From assembly GCF_021172045.1 (NCBI RefSeq), contig NZ_CP087164.1:3038001-3102000 (forward strand): a DNA stretch of 64,000 bases. Reading direction: 5' to 3'. Made by a program: the position numbers and the translations under genes. Shown in pieces: positions 33,245-39,281 of this stretch. Position 1 is the first letter of the stretch. Each line of letters opens with the position of its first letter. Origin of the DNA: Capillimicrobium parvum (GTDB lineage: Bacteria > Actinomycetota > Thermoleophilia > Solirubrobacterales > Solirubrobacteraceae). The notes beneath the pieces were generated by a model that saw only the letters and a program-made list of their open reading frames with translations, was not told the origin of the DNA and ran no database searches.

Positions 33245-33670
33245 GTGGACTACCCCTACCGGCAGCAGATCCCCACGCGCTGGCACGACAACGACGTCTA
33301 CGGACACGTCAACAACGTCGACTACTACGCGTTCTTCGACACCGTCATCAACACGTACCTGATCGCCGAGGGCGGCCTCGACATCGCCGCCGGGCCGGTG
33401 ATCGGGCTGTGCGCGGAATCGCACTGCAGGTACCACGCCGCCTTCACGTTCCCGGAGACCGTCCATGCCGCGCTGCGCGTCGGCGAGCTGCGCACGCGCG
33501 GGGTGCGCTACGAGATCGCGCTCTTCGCCGCCGGCGCCGACAGCCCCGCCGCCGAGGGCTGGTTCGTCCACGTGTTCGTCGACCGCGACACGCGCCGGCC
33601 GGTCGAGATCCCGCCGCCGCTGCGCGCCGCCCTCGAGCGGCTGGTCGTCGACGACCCGGCCGTCAGCTGA
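33245..33670 (+). CDS. Hotdog-fold acyl-CoA thioesterase, 141 aa
   Basis: Single-domain 4-hydroxybenzoyl-CoA/YbgC-like thioesterase. The signature [20 protein letters not shown] (residues 12-31) carries the catalytic Asp (HDND) and the GHVNN helix start. Acts on short-chain or aromatic acyl-CoA thioesters in the cytoplasm. Start GTG 33245. Its last 8 bases overlap the end of the convergent secreted-protein gene. Confidence 0.92.
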
Positions 33671-34862
33671 GGATCGTCGACCCGCTCGACGCCAGGCGCA
33701 GCCACGCGGCAGGCGCCGCCGCCGGCCACGTGTGGTAGTCGCCGGCCGGATTGCCGACCAGCGTCCGGTCGGCCTGCGGCAGCAGCCCTCCGGTGCCCAG
33801 CGTGGCCCAGCGCGCCGCGTTCTCGTCGATCACGTCGGTCGACACGCCCGCCGCCGCCTTCGCCATGCGCATCTGCAGCGTGCCCTCCATCCAGAGGACG
33901 TCAGGACCCCACGCCTCGGCGTACGGCTTGTAGCCGGTGAAGCGGCCCGCCTCCGGGTGGCCCTCGAACCACCGCCGCGTGAGGAGCATCTCGGAGTCGG
34001 CCGCGGTGATCACGGAGGTCGCATCGGTCCTGCGGCCCTGGCCGATCAGCCACAGCGTGCCGAGCGCCTGCGCGTCGATCGGCCGCGCGCCGTCGCCGAC
34101 GCCCTGGTTGAGGTGGGCCCGGCGCGGACCCTCGCGGACGAAGAGCTCGCGCTGGATGGCCGCGTCGGCGGTGACCGTCGCCTGGTGCAGATCGGCGGCG
34201 AGCTGGGCCGCCTCGGCCTGCCCCACCCCGGCGAGGCCACCGGCGCAGGTGCCGACGGTGCCGTTGATGAGGGCGGCCGCCCGCGCGTAGAGGGCCCGCG
34301 CCTCGAAGTTGTGCTCCGCGGAGATCCAGCTCACGTCGGGCCCGCCCGGCACGAACCCGTATCCGCGCGAGGCGGGGTCGGTGATGCGGTGGGCCAGCAG
34401 CCAGTGCGCGACGCCCGCCATCAGGCCGTCGTAGCGAGGCGAGCACGTCGACGTGCGGTACTGCGCCGCGGCGATGCCCACCCAGGCGATCGCGCCCGAT
34501 CGGGCGAGCATGTCGGCGCTGCCGGTGCGCACGTCGTAGGAGAACCCGAGCGCCCCGTCCGGCTGCTGCAGCGCGGCGAGGTCGTCGAGGATGGGCTCGG
34601 CGGCGGCGGCCTGGCCGGTGGCGGCGTACGCGGCGGCCGTGACCGCGGAGTCGTATGTCCAACCCCGGTCGCCGATGGTGGCGGCTTCGGGCTCGGAGGC
34701 GGGGATCAGGTAGGAGCGCACGAGGTTCAGGGCGTCACCCGGCTCGGCGGCGCCGGCGCTCGCGGTGCCCGAGACGGGGACCGCGAGGAGGGCGAGGAGC
34801 AGCACGGCGGCGACACGGATCCACATGGTGCGCTGAATCGGCACGTCATCGCCCTGTTCCAT
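33663..34862 (-). CDS. Secreted helical-toroid-like protein of unknown function, 399 aa
   Basis: Signal peptide or N-terminal membrane anchor at about residues 14-38 ([20 protein letters not shown]), then a repeated helix-pair pattern such as [23 protein letters not shown] and [13 protein letters not shown], reminiscent of alpha/alpha toroids found in glycan-active or terpene-cyclase-like proteins. No catalytic motif could be named. The start at ATG 34862 is favoured by GGGGAGG 8 bases upstream, although an internal ATG would give a tighter signal peptide. It diverges from the receiver/PIG-L operon with 135 bases between, and may process or bind that operon's product. Confidence 0.65.
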
Positions 34863-34997: not shown

Positions 34998-36062
34998 ATG
35001 GCCGACTACCCCCAGGGCTCCTCAACTCAGCCGAACATCCTCCTCGTCGAGGACGACGACGTCCTCGCCGCCGTGGTGATGGAGCTCCTCGCCGCGCACG
35101 GCACCGTGCGCTGGACGATGCACGGCGAGGAGGGCGCCGAGCTCGTGCGCGCCCAGCCGTGGGACCTCGTGGTCACGGACATCGAGCTGCCCGGCATCAG
35201 CGGGCTCGACCTCGTCGGCGAGATCAAGGCCGCGCAGTCCGACGTCGCGGTGCTCATCATCTCCGCGCGCGCCTCGTTCGACTACGCGGTCACCGCCCTG
35301 CGCGCCGGCGCCGACGACTACATGACCAAGCCGGTCGACCCGGTCGCGCTCGTCGAGAAGGCCGGCGAGCTCATCGTGCTCACGCGCGACCGGCGCGCCC
35401 GCAGCCGCCAGGTCGTCCTCGCCGTCGGCTCGCATCCCGACGACGTCGAGATCGGCGTCGGCGGCGTCCTCCTGCGCCACGCCGCCGAAGGCCACGAGGT
35501 GACCGTCCTCACGCTCAGCGGCGGCGAGCAGGGCGGCGTGGCCGCCGAGCGCGCGCTCGAGTCCCAGCGCGCGGCGGACCTGATGGGCGCCCGCCTCGTG
35601 CACGCGGACCTCGCCGACACGAGCCTCAGCGAGGGCGGCGCGACGATCGCCACGATCAAGGCCGTCATCGACGAGATCCACCCGACGCACGTCTACACCC
35701 ATACGTCGAAGGACGTCCACCAGGACCACCGCAACTGCCACAGCGCGACGCTCGTCGCGGCGCGCGGCATCCCGCGGATCTACTGCTACCAGGCGCCCTC
35801 CACGACCGTCGACTTCAAGCCCACGCGCTTCGTCGCCATCGACGAGTACCTCGAGCGCAAGCTCGAGGTCATCCGCGCCTACGGCTCGCAGACCGCCGTC
35901 CGCACCTATCTCGACGAGGAGCTCCTGCGCGCGACCGCGCGCTACTGGGCTCGTTACACGCAGGCGCGCTACGTCGAGCCGCTCGAGGTCGTGCGCGAGA
36001 GCGACGTCCTGATCCCGGCCGAGACCCCCATGGCCGCAATCCCGGAGGTAGCTGCCGGATGA
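34998..36062 (+). CDS. Response-regulator receiver fused to PIG-L (LmbE) deacetylase, 354 aa
   Basis: Residues 13-130 are a CheY-like receiver with acidic pocket EDDD (18-21), phospho-acceptor Asp61 in VVTDIELPG, and Lys111 in YMTKPVDP. From about residue 138 a PIG-L/LmbE zinc deacetylase follows: VGSHPDDVEIG (His146-Pro-Asp-Asp149) and the second metal site HQDHRNCHSA near 250. PIG-L enzymes remove N-acetyl groups from GlcNAc-containing glycolipids or thiol precursors. The fusion implies that a phosphorelay switches a sugar deacetylase directly, without transcription. It is the first gene of a four-gene operon; the next gene overlaps by four bases (ATGA). Confidence 0.9.
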   Translation: MADYPQGSSTQPNILLVEDDDVLAAVVMELLAAHGTVRWTMHGEEGAELVRAQPWDLVVTDIELPGISGLDLVGEIKAAQSDVAVLIISARASFDYAVTALRAGADDYMTKPVDPVALVEKAGELIVLTRDRRARSRQVVLAVGSHPDDVEIGVGGVLLRHAAEGHEVTVLTLSGGEQGGVAAERALESQRAADLMGARLVHADLADTSLSEGGATIATIKAVIDEIHPTHVYTHTSKDVHQDHRNCHSATLVAARGIPRIYCYQAPSTTVDFKPTRFVAIDEYLERKLEVIRAYGSQTAVRTYLDEELLRATARYWARYTQARYVEPLEVVRESDVLIPAETPMAAIPEVAAG

Positions 36063-37060
36063 CCGACCGACCCCGCGTGCTCGTGACCGGCACCGGCGGG
36101 CCGTCCGGGATCTCGATCCTGCGCGACCTCGCCGACGAGCCGCTCGACCTCATCGCCGCCGACATCGACCCGTTCGCCGCGGGCCTCTACCTCGTCGACG
36201 CCCCGCGCCGGGCGATCCTCCCGCGCGGCGACGACGCCGGCTTCTGCGACGCCCTGCTCGAGATCTGCCAGGCCGAGTCGGTCTCGATCGTCGTGCCCAC
36301 GGTCGACAGCGAGCTGCTGCCGCTGGCGCTCGACCGCGAGCGCTACGCCGGATCCGGCGTGCGCCTCGTGCTCGCCTCCGAGGAGACCCTGCGCACCTGC
36401 CTGGACAAGTGGGTTCTGGCCGAGCGCTGCCGCGACGCGGTGCGCGTGCCGGACACCTGGGTCGTCGACGACGGGTTCGACCCCGCCGCGCCCGACCTGC
36501 CGGTGATCGTCAAGCCGCGCTCGGGCAGCGGCTCGCGCGGCATCCGGCTCGTCGAGCGCCGCGAGGAGCTCGAGGCGCTGGAGCGCGACGGCACCCTGCT
36601 CGTCCAGGAGAACCTGCCGGGCACCGAGTACTCGCTCGACGTCATCGCCCGCGAGGACGGGCACGTCGCCGGCGTCGTGCCCCGCGCACGGCTGAAGGTC
36701 GACTCCGGCATCGCGGTCACCGGGCGCACGCTGCACGACGAGCGCCTCGACGCGTTCGCCCGCGAGGTGGCCCGGCTCATCGGCCTGACCACGGTCGCCA
36801 ACGTCCAGGTCAAGGAGGATGCCGGGGGCGTCCCGGCCCTGCTCGAGGTCAACGCGCGCTTCCCCGGCACGATGCCGCTGACGATCGCCGCGGGCGTCGA
36901 CATGCCGAAGCTGGCGATCGGCGAGGCGCTCGGCACGCCGGTGCCGGACGGTCCGCTGCCGTTCGAGGACATCGCGATGGTCCGCTTCTTCCAGGAGCGC
37001 TTCTTCTCGTTCGACGACATCACCGACCTGCAGCGCCACGCGGCGCGCGTCGCGAGCTGA
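36059..37060 (+). CDS. ATP-grasp ligase-like protein, 333 aa
   Basis: N-terminal Rossmann-like preATP-grasp domain (VLVTGTGGPSGISILRDL, residues 7-24) then an ATP-grasp fold with Lys-binding KPRSGSGSRGIR near 143, VQENLPGTEYSLDV near 180 and LLEVNARFPGTMPLT near 260 (metal-binding Glu and Asn). Resembles the carbamoyl-phosphate-synthase-like ATP-grasp enzymes often found in polysaccharide or cell-surface gene clusters, which join an amino group to a carboxylate. Substrates unknown. Coupled by ATGA to the receiver/PIG-L gene. Confidence 0.87.
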   Translation: MTDRPRVLVTGTGGPSGISILRDLADEPLDLIAADIDPFAAGLYLVDAPRRAILPRGDDAGFCDALLEICQAESVSIVVPTVDSELLPLALDRERYAGSGVRLVLASEETLRTCLDKWVLAERCRDAVRVPDTWVVDDGFDPAAPDLPVIVKPRSGSGSRGIRLVERREELEALERDGTLLVQENLPGTEYSLDVIAREDGHVAGVVPRARLKVDSGIAVTGRTLHDERLDAFAREVARLIGLTTVANVQVKEDAGGVPALLEVNARFPGTMPLTIAAGVDMPKLAIGEALGTPVPDGPLPFEDIAMVRFFQERFFSFDDITDLQRHAARVAS

Positions 37061-37069
37061 GCCGGCGCG

Positions 37070-37804
37070 ATGGCGAGCACGCCCGTCCACCAGGACATGC
37101 AGGTGCACTCGACGTTCTCCGACGGCGCCGACACGGTGGAGGCGAACGTCGCGGCGGCCGAGGCGGCGGGCCTGACCGAGATGACGTGCGTGGACCACGT
37201 CCGCGTCGGCACCGACTGGCTGCCGGAGTACGTGGCCGAGGTCCAGCGCGCGCGGACGCGGACGCACGTGCGCCTCGTGTGCGGCATCGAGGCCAAGCTG
37301 CTCGACACGACGGGCCGGCTCGACATGCCCGACGAGCTGCCGCCGGGCATCGAGGTGATCTACGCGGCAGACCACCAGGTCGCCATGGACGACGGGGTCA
37401 ACCATCCCGACGACGTGCGCGACCGCCTGGCCCGCGGCGAGCTCGACGGCGCCGAGGTGTTCCGCTGCCTCATCGAGTCGACGCGGCGCACGCTCGACCG
37501 CCCGCAGCCGGTCGTGATCGCGCACCTCTTCTCGATCGTCGGAAAGCTCGGGCTCGACGAGTCCGACGCGCCGCTGGACCAGATCGAGGCGCTCGCCGAC
37601 GAGACCGCCCGGACCGGCCAGCGCATCGAGGTCAACGAGCGCTACAAGACGCCGTCCGCGCGCACCCTGCGTCCGTTCGTCGACCGCGGCGTGCCGCTGC
37701 TGGTGAGCACCGACAGCCATCGGGCGGACACGATCGGCCGTTACGACCACTGCCTGACGGTCCTGCGCGAGCTCGACGCCGTGCCGGCCTACGGCGGCAC
37801 CTGA
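37070..37804 (+). CDS. PHP-domain metal-dependent hydrolase, 244 aa
   Basis: PHP fold with metal ligands in DMQVHSTFSDG (His13-equivalent and Asp), CVDHVR near 40, GIEAKLLD near 70, IAHLFSI near 145 and STDSHRAD near 218. PHP proteins are phosphoesterases (for example histidinol-phosphatase or PolC-type). The gene lies 9 bases after the ATP-grasp gene and 22 before the glycosyltransferase, so it is third in the operon. A phosphatase acting on a sugar phosphate or on a phosphorylated intermediate would fit. Confidence 0.87.
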   Translation: MASTPVHQDMQVHSTFSDGADTVEANVAAAEAAGLTEMTCVDHVRVGTDWLPEYVAEVQRARTRTHVRLVCGIEAKLLDTTGRLDMPDELPPGIEVIYAADHQVAMDDGVNHPDDVRDRLARGELDGAEVFRCLIESTRRTLDRPQPVVIAHLFSIVGKLGLDESDAPLDQIEALADETARTGQRIEVNERYKTPSARTLRPFVDRGVPLLVSTDSHRADTIGRYDHCLTVLRELDAVPAYGGT

Positions 37805-37826: not shown

Positions 37827-39281
37827 ATGGCCTGGTCGATCATCCACCCGATCCTCGTGGCGATCGTCATCGCCGGGGCGATGCCGCTCATCGCCGGCTG
37901 CTACCAGTTCCTGCTTGCCGGGTTCAACGGCTTCTTCGGCGTGTGGAAGCGCGAGGGTGTGCCGGGCGTGCCGCTGCCGCGCGTCGCGGTCATCGTGCCG
38001 GCGTGGAACGAGGCGGCGGTCATCGGGCGCACCCTCGACACGCTCATGGCGCTCGACTACCCGGCCGACCGCCTGCGCGTGTACGTCGTCGACGACGCCA
38101 GCACCGACGAGACGCCCGGCGTCATCCTCGGCAAGTCGGCCGAGTACCCGGGCCGCGTCTTCCACGTCCGCCGCGAACAGGGCGGCGAGGGCAAGGCACA
38201 CACGATCAACCACGGGCTGCGCACCATCCGCTCCGAGGACTGGTACGAGGCGATCCTCATCATCGACGCCGACGTGATCTTCACGCCGCGGTCGCTGCGC
38301 AAGATGGCCCGCCACCTGACGCGCTCGGAGGTCGGCGCGGTGACGGCGTACATCAAGGAGGGCAGCCGGCCCGAGAACTTCATGAACCGCTTCATCGCCT
38401 ACGAGTACGTCAACGCACAGGCGGGGGCGCGGCGCGCGCAGAACGTGCTCGGCGCACAGGCCTGCCTGGCGGGCGGCGCGCAACTGATCCGGCGCGACGC
38501 GTTCGAGGCGATCGGCGGGGTGATCGACACGTCCTCGCTGGCCGAGGACACGTTCACGACCCTGAACATCCAGCTCGCCGGCTGGCGGGTCGTCTTCGAG
38601 CCGCACGCGATCGTGTGGGCCGAGGAGCCGCGCGACATCGGGGGTCTGTGGAAGCAGCGGCTGCGCTGGGGGCGCGGCAACGTGCAGGTCACGCTGCGCT
38701 ACCGGCGCGTGTGGCTGCGGCGATGGACGGCGGGGCGACTGGGCAGCCTGAGCTTCGCGCTGATCTGGTTCTCGGTCTTCCTGATGCCGGCGTTCATGAT
38801 CTCCTCGTCGCTGGCGCTGATCGTGCTGTGGCTGCACGACCGCGACGTGTCGATCGAGGCGTTCCGGCTGCTGTGGTTCGTCAACCTCGCGACGTACCTG
38901 TTCATCACGCTGTCGAGCTTCTCGCTGGACTGGTCCGCGGCGCGGGTGGCGTGGCGGGAGGCGTTCCTGTTTCCCGGCCTGATCAGCCTCGCGATCATCG
39001 CCTACGCGATCGTCCCCGACCTCATCGGCGAGGTGGGCGGCGACGCGTTCCTGCTGTTCGCCTACGTGTGGCTGTCGGCGTCGATGCTCGCGGCGTGGCT
39101 CGTCAAGCGCATCGAGGCGACGCGCGTGCTCGGCTGGGCGGCGCGGCCGCTGCTGTACGTCGTGGGCTTCGGGCCGGTGCTCTGCGCGATCACCGCGAAC
39201 GCCTACGTCAAGGAGATCCGGGGCTCGGAGATGGTGTGGGAGAAGACCGAGAAGACCGGGACCGTCGGCGAGCTGGCGTGA
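37827..39281 (+). CDS. Membrane-bound processive GT2 glycosyltransferase, 484 aa
   Basis: One N-terminal membrane helix (about 8-28), a cytoplasmic GT-A domain and four or five C-terminal helices (from about 305). Catalytic motifs of processive family 2 enzymes are present: VPAWNEAAVI near 53, DDAST near 88, DADV (the DxD) near 148, LAEDT near 238 and QRLRWGRG (Q-x-x-R-W) near 275. This set is shared by PgaC/IcaA, hyaluronan and cellulose synthases, which polymerise and export a beta-linked glycan. With a PIG-L deacetylase in the same operon, a partly deacetylated amino-sugar polymer is a reasonable guess. Confidence 0.92.
   Translation: MAWSIIHPILVAIVIAGAMPLIAGCYQFLLAGFNGFFGVWKREGVPGVPLPRVAVIVPAWNEAAVIGRTLDTLMALDYPADRLRVYVVDDASTDETPGVILGKSAEYPGRVFHVRREQGGEGKAHTINHGLRTIRSEDWYEAILIIDADVIFTPRSLRKMARHLTRSEVGAVTAYIKEGSRPENFMNRFIAYEYVNAQAGARRAQNVLGAQACLAGGAQLIRRDAFEAIGGVIDTSSLAEDTFTTLNIQLAGWRVVFEPHAIVWAEEPRDIGGLWKQRLRWGRGNVQVTLRYRRVWLRRWTAGRLGSLSFALIWFSVFLMPAFMISSSLALIVLWLHDRDVSIEAFRLLWFVNLATYLFITLSSFSLDWSAARVAWREAFLFPGLISLAIIAYAIVPDLIGEVGGDAFLLFAYVWLSASMLAAWLVKRIEATRVLGWAARPLLYVVGFGPVLCAITANAYVKEIRGSEMVWEKTEKTGTVGELA

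What the first reader, a model, noticed from the sequence alone, without database searches (positions are those of the whole stretch)
34998..36062. Receiver domain fused to a PIG-L deacetylase
The phospho-acceptor Asp61, acidic pocket and Lys111 are all present, and both PIG-L metal motifs (HPDD; HxDHxxxH) are intact. This predicts phosphorylation control of a sugar N-deacetylase, a direct enzymatic output rarely reported for two-component signalling.
Basis: partly seen in the sequence, partly recalled or inferred. Interest (0 to 1): 0.72.

Follow-up and report, generated by a model that had tools for sequence, protein, structure and literature searches.

The report
Kinase-switchable sugar deacetylase in glycan operon
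This gene fuses the on/off receiver switch of a bacterial signalling system directly to a sugar-deacetylating enzyme, and the same fusion recurs in distantly related bacteria beside sensor kinases and surface-glycan genes, which suggests that a sensor may directly switch an enzyme that probably tailors a cell-surface sugar.

Summary
The ORF at 34998-36062 (+) is a 354-residue protein with a canonical receiver (PF00072, E 4.5e-24) followed by an intact PIG-L domain (PF02585, E 1.4e-23). It heads a tight four-gene module: Rec-PIG-L, CarB/PylC-like ATP-grasp, PHP phosphoesterase, processive-type GT2.

The fusion is not a local oddity. All eight strong homologues in the order are fused, and it recurs in at least five phyla by record title, mostly beside the same genes. 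It is a discrete, sporadic subfamily; unfused sisters sit beside GT2 and ATP-grasp genes. Histidine kinases lie within 6.5 kb of 57 of 66 intact-receiver loci but only 2 of 14 degenerate-receiver loci (suggestive: about four independent degenerations), and several kinase starts overlap the Rec-PIG-L stop. Some Gammaproteobacteria add an H-NOX gene.

The window's own locus has no linked kinase (nearest HisKA about 98 kb away). Phospho-control of a deacetylase tailoring an exported glycan is the best explanation; substrate, sign of regulation and partner kinase are not shown. I found no paper describing it, but the key response-regulator censuses were not readable here. New variant of a known kind (response regulator with enzymatic output).

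The parts
34998..36062 (+). Rec-PIG-L fusion protein, 354 aa (Rec aa 13-122, alpha5/linker helix aa 115-136, PIG-L aa 139-335, variable tail)
35034..35363 (+). receiver domain (aa 13-122), acceptor D61, pocket E18/D19/D20, S89, K111
   Evidence: Pfam PF00072; Foldseek to BfmR receiver 5hm6 TM 0.92
35412..36002 (+). PIG-L/LmbE deacetylase domain (aa 139-335), HPDD 146-149, H241/H244, R185
   Evidence: Pfam PF02585; Foldseek 2ixd E 1e-14; residue mapping
36059..37060 (+). ATP-grasp ligase (PRK12767/CarB-like, ATPgrasp_Ter/PylC-like); its ATG overlaps the Rec-PIG-L TGA (ATGA)
37070..37804 (+). PHP-domain phosphoesterase-like protein
   Evidence: PF02811 E 4.9e-8
37827..39281 (+). membrane GT2 glycosyltransferase of the PgaC/cellulose-synthase type, with a Q-x-x-R-W motif (QRLRW)
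   Evidence: below the PgaC equivalog cut-off (136.6 vs 422.3 bits)
33663..34862 (-). divergent secreted-looking protein without a Pfam family; homologues sit at the same place in two relatives and, weakly, beside an alphaproteobacterial Rec-PIG-L (L121). Membership of the module is tentative

Best explanation
The protein is a response regulator whose output is an intracellular LmbE/PIG-L-type N-deacetylase. A histidine kinase (or a phosphorelay through stand-alone receivers) phosphorylates D61. The receiver, joined to the enzyme by one continuous alpha5 helix, then changes the activity or assembly of the PIG-L domain. The deacetylase works in a short cytosolic pathway with an ATP-grasp ligase (which could acylate the freed amine) and a PHP phosphoesterase, feeding a membrane GT2 synthase that makes or exports an amino-sugar glycan. 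Shown here: the domains, intact catalytic residues, conserved fusion, conserved module and statistical linkage to kinases. Inferred: phosphorylation, direction of control, substrate and the glycan product.
For: Intact residues in both domains. Confident whole-chain model: pLDDT 93.3, pTM 0.85, helix 115-136 running up to the PIG-L domain. Fusion plus ATP-grasp/PHP/GT2 conserved in six genomes of the order (the window included) and in many Actinobacteria, with parts of the module in other phyla. Kinase linkage: 57/66 intact vs 2/14 degenerate receivers, against a background of 23 HisKA genes in 5.95 Mb, i.e. roughly one in 20 stretches of 13 kb. A possible kinase start overlaps or abuts the Rec-PIG-L stop in L094, L103, L114, L079, L232, L237, L238, L246, L241. 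A receiver-free version of the module exists: unfused PIG-L with GT2 and ATP-grasp, plus UDP-GlcNAc 2-epimerase (L158) or exosortase (L159). Export-type TPR outer-membrane-like proteins and LMW tyrosine phosphatase beside Gram-negative versions.
Against: No kinase is linked in the window's own locus; the nearest HisKA gene is about 98 kb away. Relatives L033, L034/L043, L035 and L037/L044 also show none. The receiver is degenerate in 11 of 78 scored family members, so the enzyme can evidently persist without phosphorylation there. The kinase/receiver correlation involves only about four degenerations and is not significant on independent pairs. The substrate is unknown; PIG-L folds include a hydratase (GalB 5cgz).
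Confidence: 0.6

Rival explanations
1. The receiver works mainly as a dimerisation or docking module (to a kinase, to the stand-alone receivers or to the GT2 complex); phosphorylation controls assembly or location of the biosynthetic complex, not catalysis.
For: A receiver-like fold is kept even where the phosphorylation site is lost: a degenerate receiver is modelled with the same alternating beta/alpha layout at high confidence. One or two stand-alone receivers lie between GT2 and kinase in many Actinobacteria.
Against: Most receivers (67 of 78 loci) keep the whole phosphorylation site, and site integrity goes with a linked kinase. A pure scaffold would not need this.
Confidence: 0.2
2. In this organism the receiver is an orphan or relic: the enzyme is constitutive, or is modulated only by small phosphodonors.
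For: No kinase within the 64-kb window, nearest HisKA about 98 kb away; several lineages have degenerate receivers and no linked kinase; the receiver is less conserved than the enzyme (53-66% vs 72-83% identity).
Against: E18, D19, D20, D61 and K111 are invariant in all nine orthologues of the order, where relic receivers elsewhere have lost them. Relatives L036 and L038-L040 do have a hybrid kinase next door. Orphan regulators are often phosphorylated by unlinked kinases (general knowledge).
Confidence: 0.15
3. The PIG-L domain acts on something other than a GlcNAc sugar (another amide, or a hydratase reaction like GalB), and the module makes a small modified metabolite, not a polysaccharide.
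For: The ATP-grasp resembles the family named for Ter-operon metabolite pathways (PF15632). Foldseek also finds GalB 5cgz. NCBIfam has no model that claims it; BshB1 84 vs 182.5 bits.
Against: GT2 of processive type in the module, UDP-GlcNAc 2-epimerase and exosortase beside unfused sisters, TPR outer-membrane-like and phosphatase genes in Gram-negatives. The best structural matches are mostly GlcNAc-type deacetylases.
Confidence: 0.2

Closest known systems
Response regulators with enzymatic output domains, including Rec-BcsA-like GT2 fusions of methanogens such as MTH_548 (PMC5847659)
   Same: Receiver fused directly to a metabolic enzyme, with a link to a cellulose-synthase-like GT2
   Different: Output is a PIG-L deacetylase, not the GT2; those archaeal fusions are described as phyletically narrow, whereas this one recurs in at least five bacterial phyla by record title
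BshB1/BcZBP and MshB (LmbE/PIG-L superfamily deacetylases)
   Same: Fold, metal ligands, catalytic Asp and substrate-site Arg/His
   Different: Those have no receiver; this one is below the BshB1 equivalog cut-off and sits in a GT2/ATP-grasp/PHP operon, not a thiol pathway
PgaABCD/IcaADBC poly-GlcNAc systems
   Same: Works-like resemblance: GT2 synthase plus N-deacetylase, TPR outer-membrane-like protein in Gram-negatives
   Different: The deacetylase here is a predicted cytosolic PIG-L enzyme under a receiver, not an extracytoplasmic polysaccharide deacetylase (general knowledge); extra ATP-grasp and PHP; GT2 far below the PgaC cut-off
H-NOX/histidine kinase NO-sensing systems
   Same: In Kangiella, two Marinicella and an Acidiferrobacterales MAG an HNOB-domain gene lies beside Rec-PIG-L; in Kangiella and Marinicella L071 with a hybrid kinase and a LuxR regulator
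   Different: Nothing of this in the window's organism; regulation by NO is only inferred from position

Membership tests
Response regulator (receiver domain) | (beta/alpha)5 receiver fold matching PF00072 | tested here: met
   (E 4.5e-24); model, Foldseek
Response regulator (receiver domain) | Phospho-acceptor Asp, acidic pair, Lys and Thr/Ser switch residue | tested here: met
   E18 D19 D20 D61 S89 K111
Response regulator (receiver domain) | Phosphorylated by a cognate histidine kinase | not testable with these tools
   Only genetic linkage in relatives; no linked kinase in the window
PIG-L/LmbE superfamily | PF02585 match and His-Asp-His metal site with Asp base | tested here: met
   H146, D149, H244, base D148
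PIG-L/LmbE superfamily | N-deacetylase activity on an amino sugar | not testable with these tools
   Bench assay needed
BshB1 bacillithiol deacetylase (TIGR04001) | Score over the equivalog cut-off of 182.5 bits | tested here: not met
   83.9 bits
PgaC/IcaA poly-GlcNAc synthase (TIGR03937), for the GT2 of the module | Score over the equivalog cut-off of 422.3 bits | tested here: not met
   136.6 bits
H-NOX-controlled system | HNOB gene next to the regulator | tested here: not met
   Found only at L112, L071, L063, L092, not in the window

The most novel reading that the evidence does not exclude
A multi-phylum family of two-component systems in which the sensor kinase (in some bacteria probably with an NO-sensing H-NOX partner) does not change transcription but directly switches an intracellular sugar deacetylase, so that environmental signals set the free-amine content, and hence charge or further acylation, of an exported glycan without new protein synthesis.
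Probability: 0.35. Interest if true: 0.78.

Novelty: new variant of a known kind. Interest (0 to 1): 0.55.

Why it matters
Most studied two-component outputs are transcription factors or c-di-GMP enzymes. If this is right, a widespread but sporadic response-regulator class controls glycan chemistry directly at the enzyme, and the natural experiment is already present: sister enzymes without a receiver, enzymes with a dead receiver and no kinase, and enzymes whose stop codon overlaps a kinase start. It also gives a handle on an uncharacterised glycan module (Rec-PIG-L, ATP-grasp, PHP, GT2).

Tried and rejected
Literature: nine searches of the open PMC set for receiver/response regulator with PIG-L, LmbE, GlcNAc-PI de-N-acetylase, ATP-grasp/PHP or H-NOX terms gave no paper on this fusion; Galperin's 2006 and 2010 output-domain censuses are not held, so prior listing there cannot be excluded. 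Filing it as BshB1, or its GT2 as PgaC: rejected on cut-offs. Phylogenetically controlled test of receiver integrity against kinase linkage: tried twice, too few independent events. A tree with unfused PIG-L outgroups was useless because those rows sat on very long branches. dN/dS is unreliable at about 97% GC3 and is not used as evidence. Search for a partner kinase in the own genome by similarity to relatives' linked kinases: no clear orthologue (best 37-45% over the kinase core). Plasmid records: no match. L078 was left out of the counts (receiver lies in another frame) and so was L120 (its matched stretch holds a stop; no full receiver upstream). A Pfam scan of the L231 kinase used coordinates of the wrong orientation and says nothing.

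Full report
Observation. The frame at 34998-36062 (+) encodes 354 aa. Pfam finds one receiver (aa 14-121, E 4.5e-24) and one PIG-L domain (aa 141-254, E 1.4e-23). Mapping to BcZBP/BshB (PDB 2ixd) and the LmbE review PMC4101496 puts the metal ligands at H146, D149 and H244, the general base at D148, and substrate-site residues at R185 and H241. The last His of the quoted motif (H248) is not a ligand and varies in the wider family. The AlphaFold2 model has pLDDT 93.3 and pTM 0.85; alpha5 of the receiver (115-136) is one continuous helix up to the first PIG-L strand. Foldseek matches the C-terminal part to BC1534/BshB (E 1e-14) and the N-terminal part to receivers such as BfmR.

Local setting. 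The gene heads a compact run on the + strand: ATP-grasp (36059-37060, start overlapping the Rec-PIG-L stop as ATGA), PHP (37070-37804) and a GT2 of the PgaC/cellulose synthase type (37827-39281). Upstream and divergent lies an unclassified secreted-looking protein (33663-34862), also present at that place in two relatives and weakly similar to one beside an alphaproteobacterial copy. No histidine kinase was found in the 64-kb window; this genome has 23 HisKA matches, the nearest about 98 kb away. Its other PIG-L gene is unfused and far off.

Conservation of the fusion. In 200 sampled genomes of the order, eight other genomes have a strong match, and all eight are fused, with invariant phosphorylation and catalytic residues except that H241 is Asn in one genus. 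A scan of 84,980 species genomes returned more than 500 relatives of the PIG-L part; of the best 80, 78 could be scored, and 67 have an intact receiver and 11 a degenerate one. Record titles name Actinobacteria, Proteobacteria, Bacteroidetes/Rhodothermales, Gemmatimonadota and Myxococcota; several are MAGs whose labels I did not check. Profile scores separate the fused subfamily (about 250-295 bits) from unfused PIG-L (about 211 bits or less). It is sporadic: 3 of 396 genomes of the phylum (the window's own included) and 1 of 398 in the phylum of Kangiella (the centre of that sample).

The module. ATP-grasp, PHP and GT2 follow Rec-PIG-L in that order in most Actinobacteria. In Kangiella and Marinicella the order is Rec-PIG-L, ATP-grasp, GT2, TPR outer-membrane-type protein, with a low-molecular-weight phosphatase gene next to it, and a divergent H-NOX gene, hybrid kinase and LuxR regulator; H-NOX is also beside the second Marinicella and the Acidiferrobacterales copies. 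Several alphaproteobacterial copies lie by GT2 and a TPR protein. Unfused sister enzymes sit with GT2 and ATP-grasp, plus a UDP-GlcNAc 2-epimerase (L158) or an exosortase (L159). This points to an amino-sugar-containing exported glycan; the point is inference from gene content.

Link to kinases. With an HMM made from the kinases of this genome, a kinase lies within 6.5 kb in 57 of 66 loci with intact receivers and in 2 of 14 with degenerate ones (Fisher 3e-7, sequences not independent; the Kangiella kinase was added by hand from its Pfam match). The loci added in a second round alone give 16/18 against 1/4 (p 0.02), but they come from orders chosen around known carriers. Mapped on the tree there are only about four changes of receiver state, and the independent-pairs test has no power, so I treat this as suggestive. 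More direct: in nine of the ten pairs examined, a possible kinase start codon overlaps or abuts the Rec-PIG-L stop, the usual layout of a cognate regulator-kinase pair; kinase starts were not verified. The criteria for 'intact' (D61, K111, at least two of three acidic residues) were set by me. A degenerate example (Serinicoccus, L122) still models with a receiver-like layout, although its Foldseek list reports only the PIG-L part.

Mechanism. Best reading (0.6): phosphorylation of D61 modulates the attached deacetylase, which supplies a free amine for the ATP-grasp ligase or for the glycan itself. Rivals: scaffold/assembly control, an orphan or relic receiver in this organism, or a non-sugar substrate. 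The sign of regulation is unknown, and nothing here demonstrates enzymatic activity.

Known or new. Receivers fused to metabolic enzymes are an accepted class; PMC5847659 describes such archaeal fusions, including Rec-BcsA-like GT2, and notes their narrow distribution. I found no paper on Rec-PIG-L in the open library, but the two main bacterial censuses are not held. Hence: new variant of a known kind, with the caveat that the architecture may already be listed in a database or census.

Noticed in passing
L112:6892-7437 (-), L071:6849-7460 (-), L063:1676-2230 (-), L092:6836-7411 (-): H-NOX (HNOB) genes next to Rec-PIG-L in Kangiella, two Marinicella and an Acidiferrobacterales MAG, with a hybrid kinase and LuxR regulator at L112 and L071: possible NO control of a glycan operon.
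   Followed up: partly
L093, L102, L110, L117, L118, L122, L230, L231, L234, L248: Degenerate receivers (acceptor and/or Lys lost) still fused to an intact PIG-L domain in Streptomyces, Nocardioides-order, Occultella, Serinicoccus and Nakamurella copies.
   Followed up: partly
L038-L040, L045, L070: One Solirubrobacterales genus has Asn in place of the conserved His241 (His110 of BshB, His144 of MshB), though the metal ligands are kept; activity or specificity may differ. These copies have no ATP-grasp/PHP/GT2 neighbours found but a divergent hybrid kinase.
   Followed up: no
window 33663-34862 (-): Secreted-looking 399-aa protein with no Pfam match, conserved divergently from Rec-PIG-L in L033 and L036, and weakly similar to a protein beside the L121 copy.
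   Followed up: partly
L158:9601-10356 (-), L159:3503-4162 (-): Unfused sister PIG-L enzymes beside GT2 and ATP-grasp, with UDP-GlcNAc 2-epimerase or exosortase: the same kind of module without a receiver.
   Followed up: partly
L078:7600-8549: In Leucobacter sp. Ag1 the receiver part appears to lie in another reading frame than PIG-L (frameshift or sequencing error).
   Followed up: no
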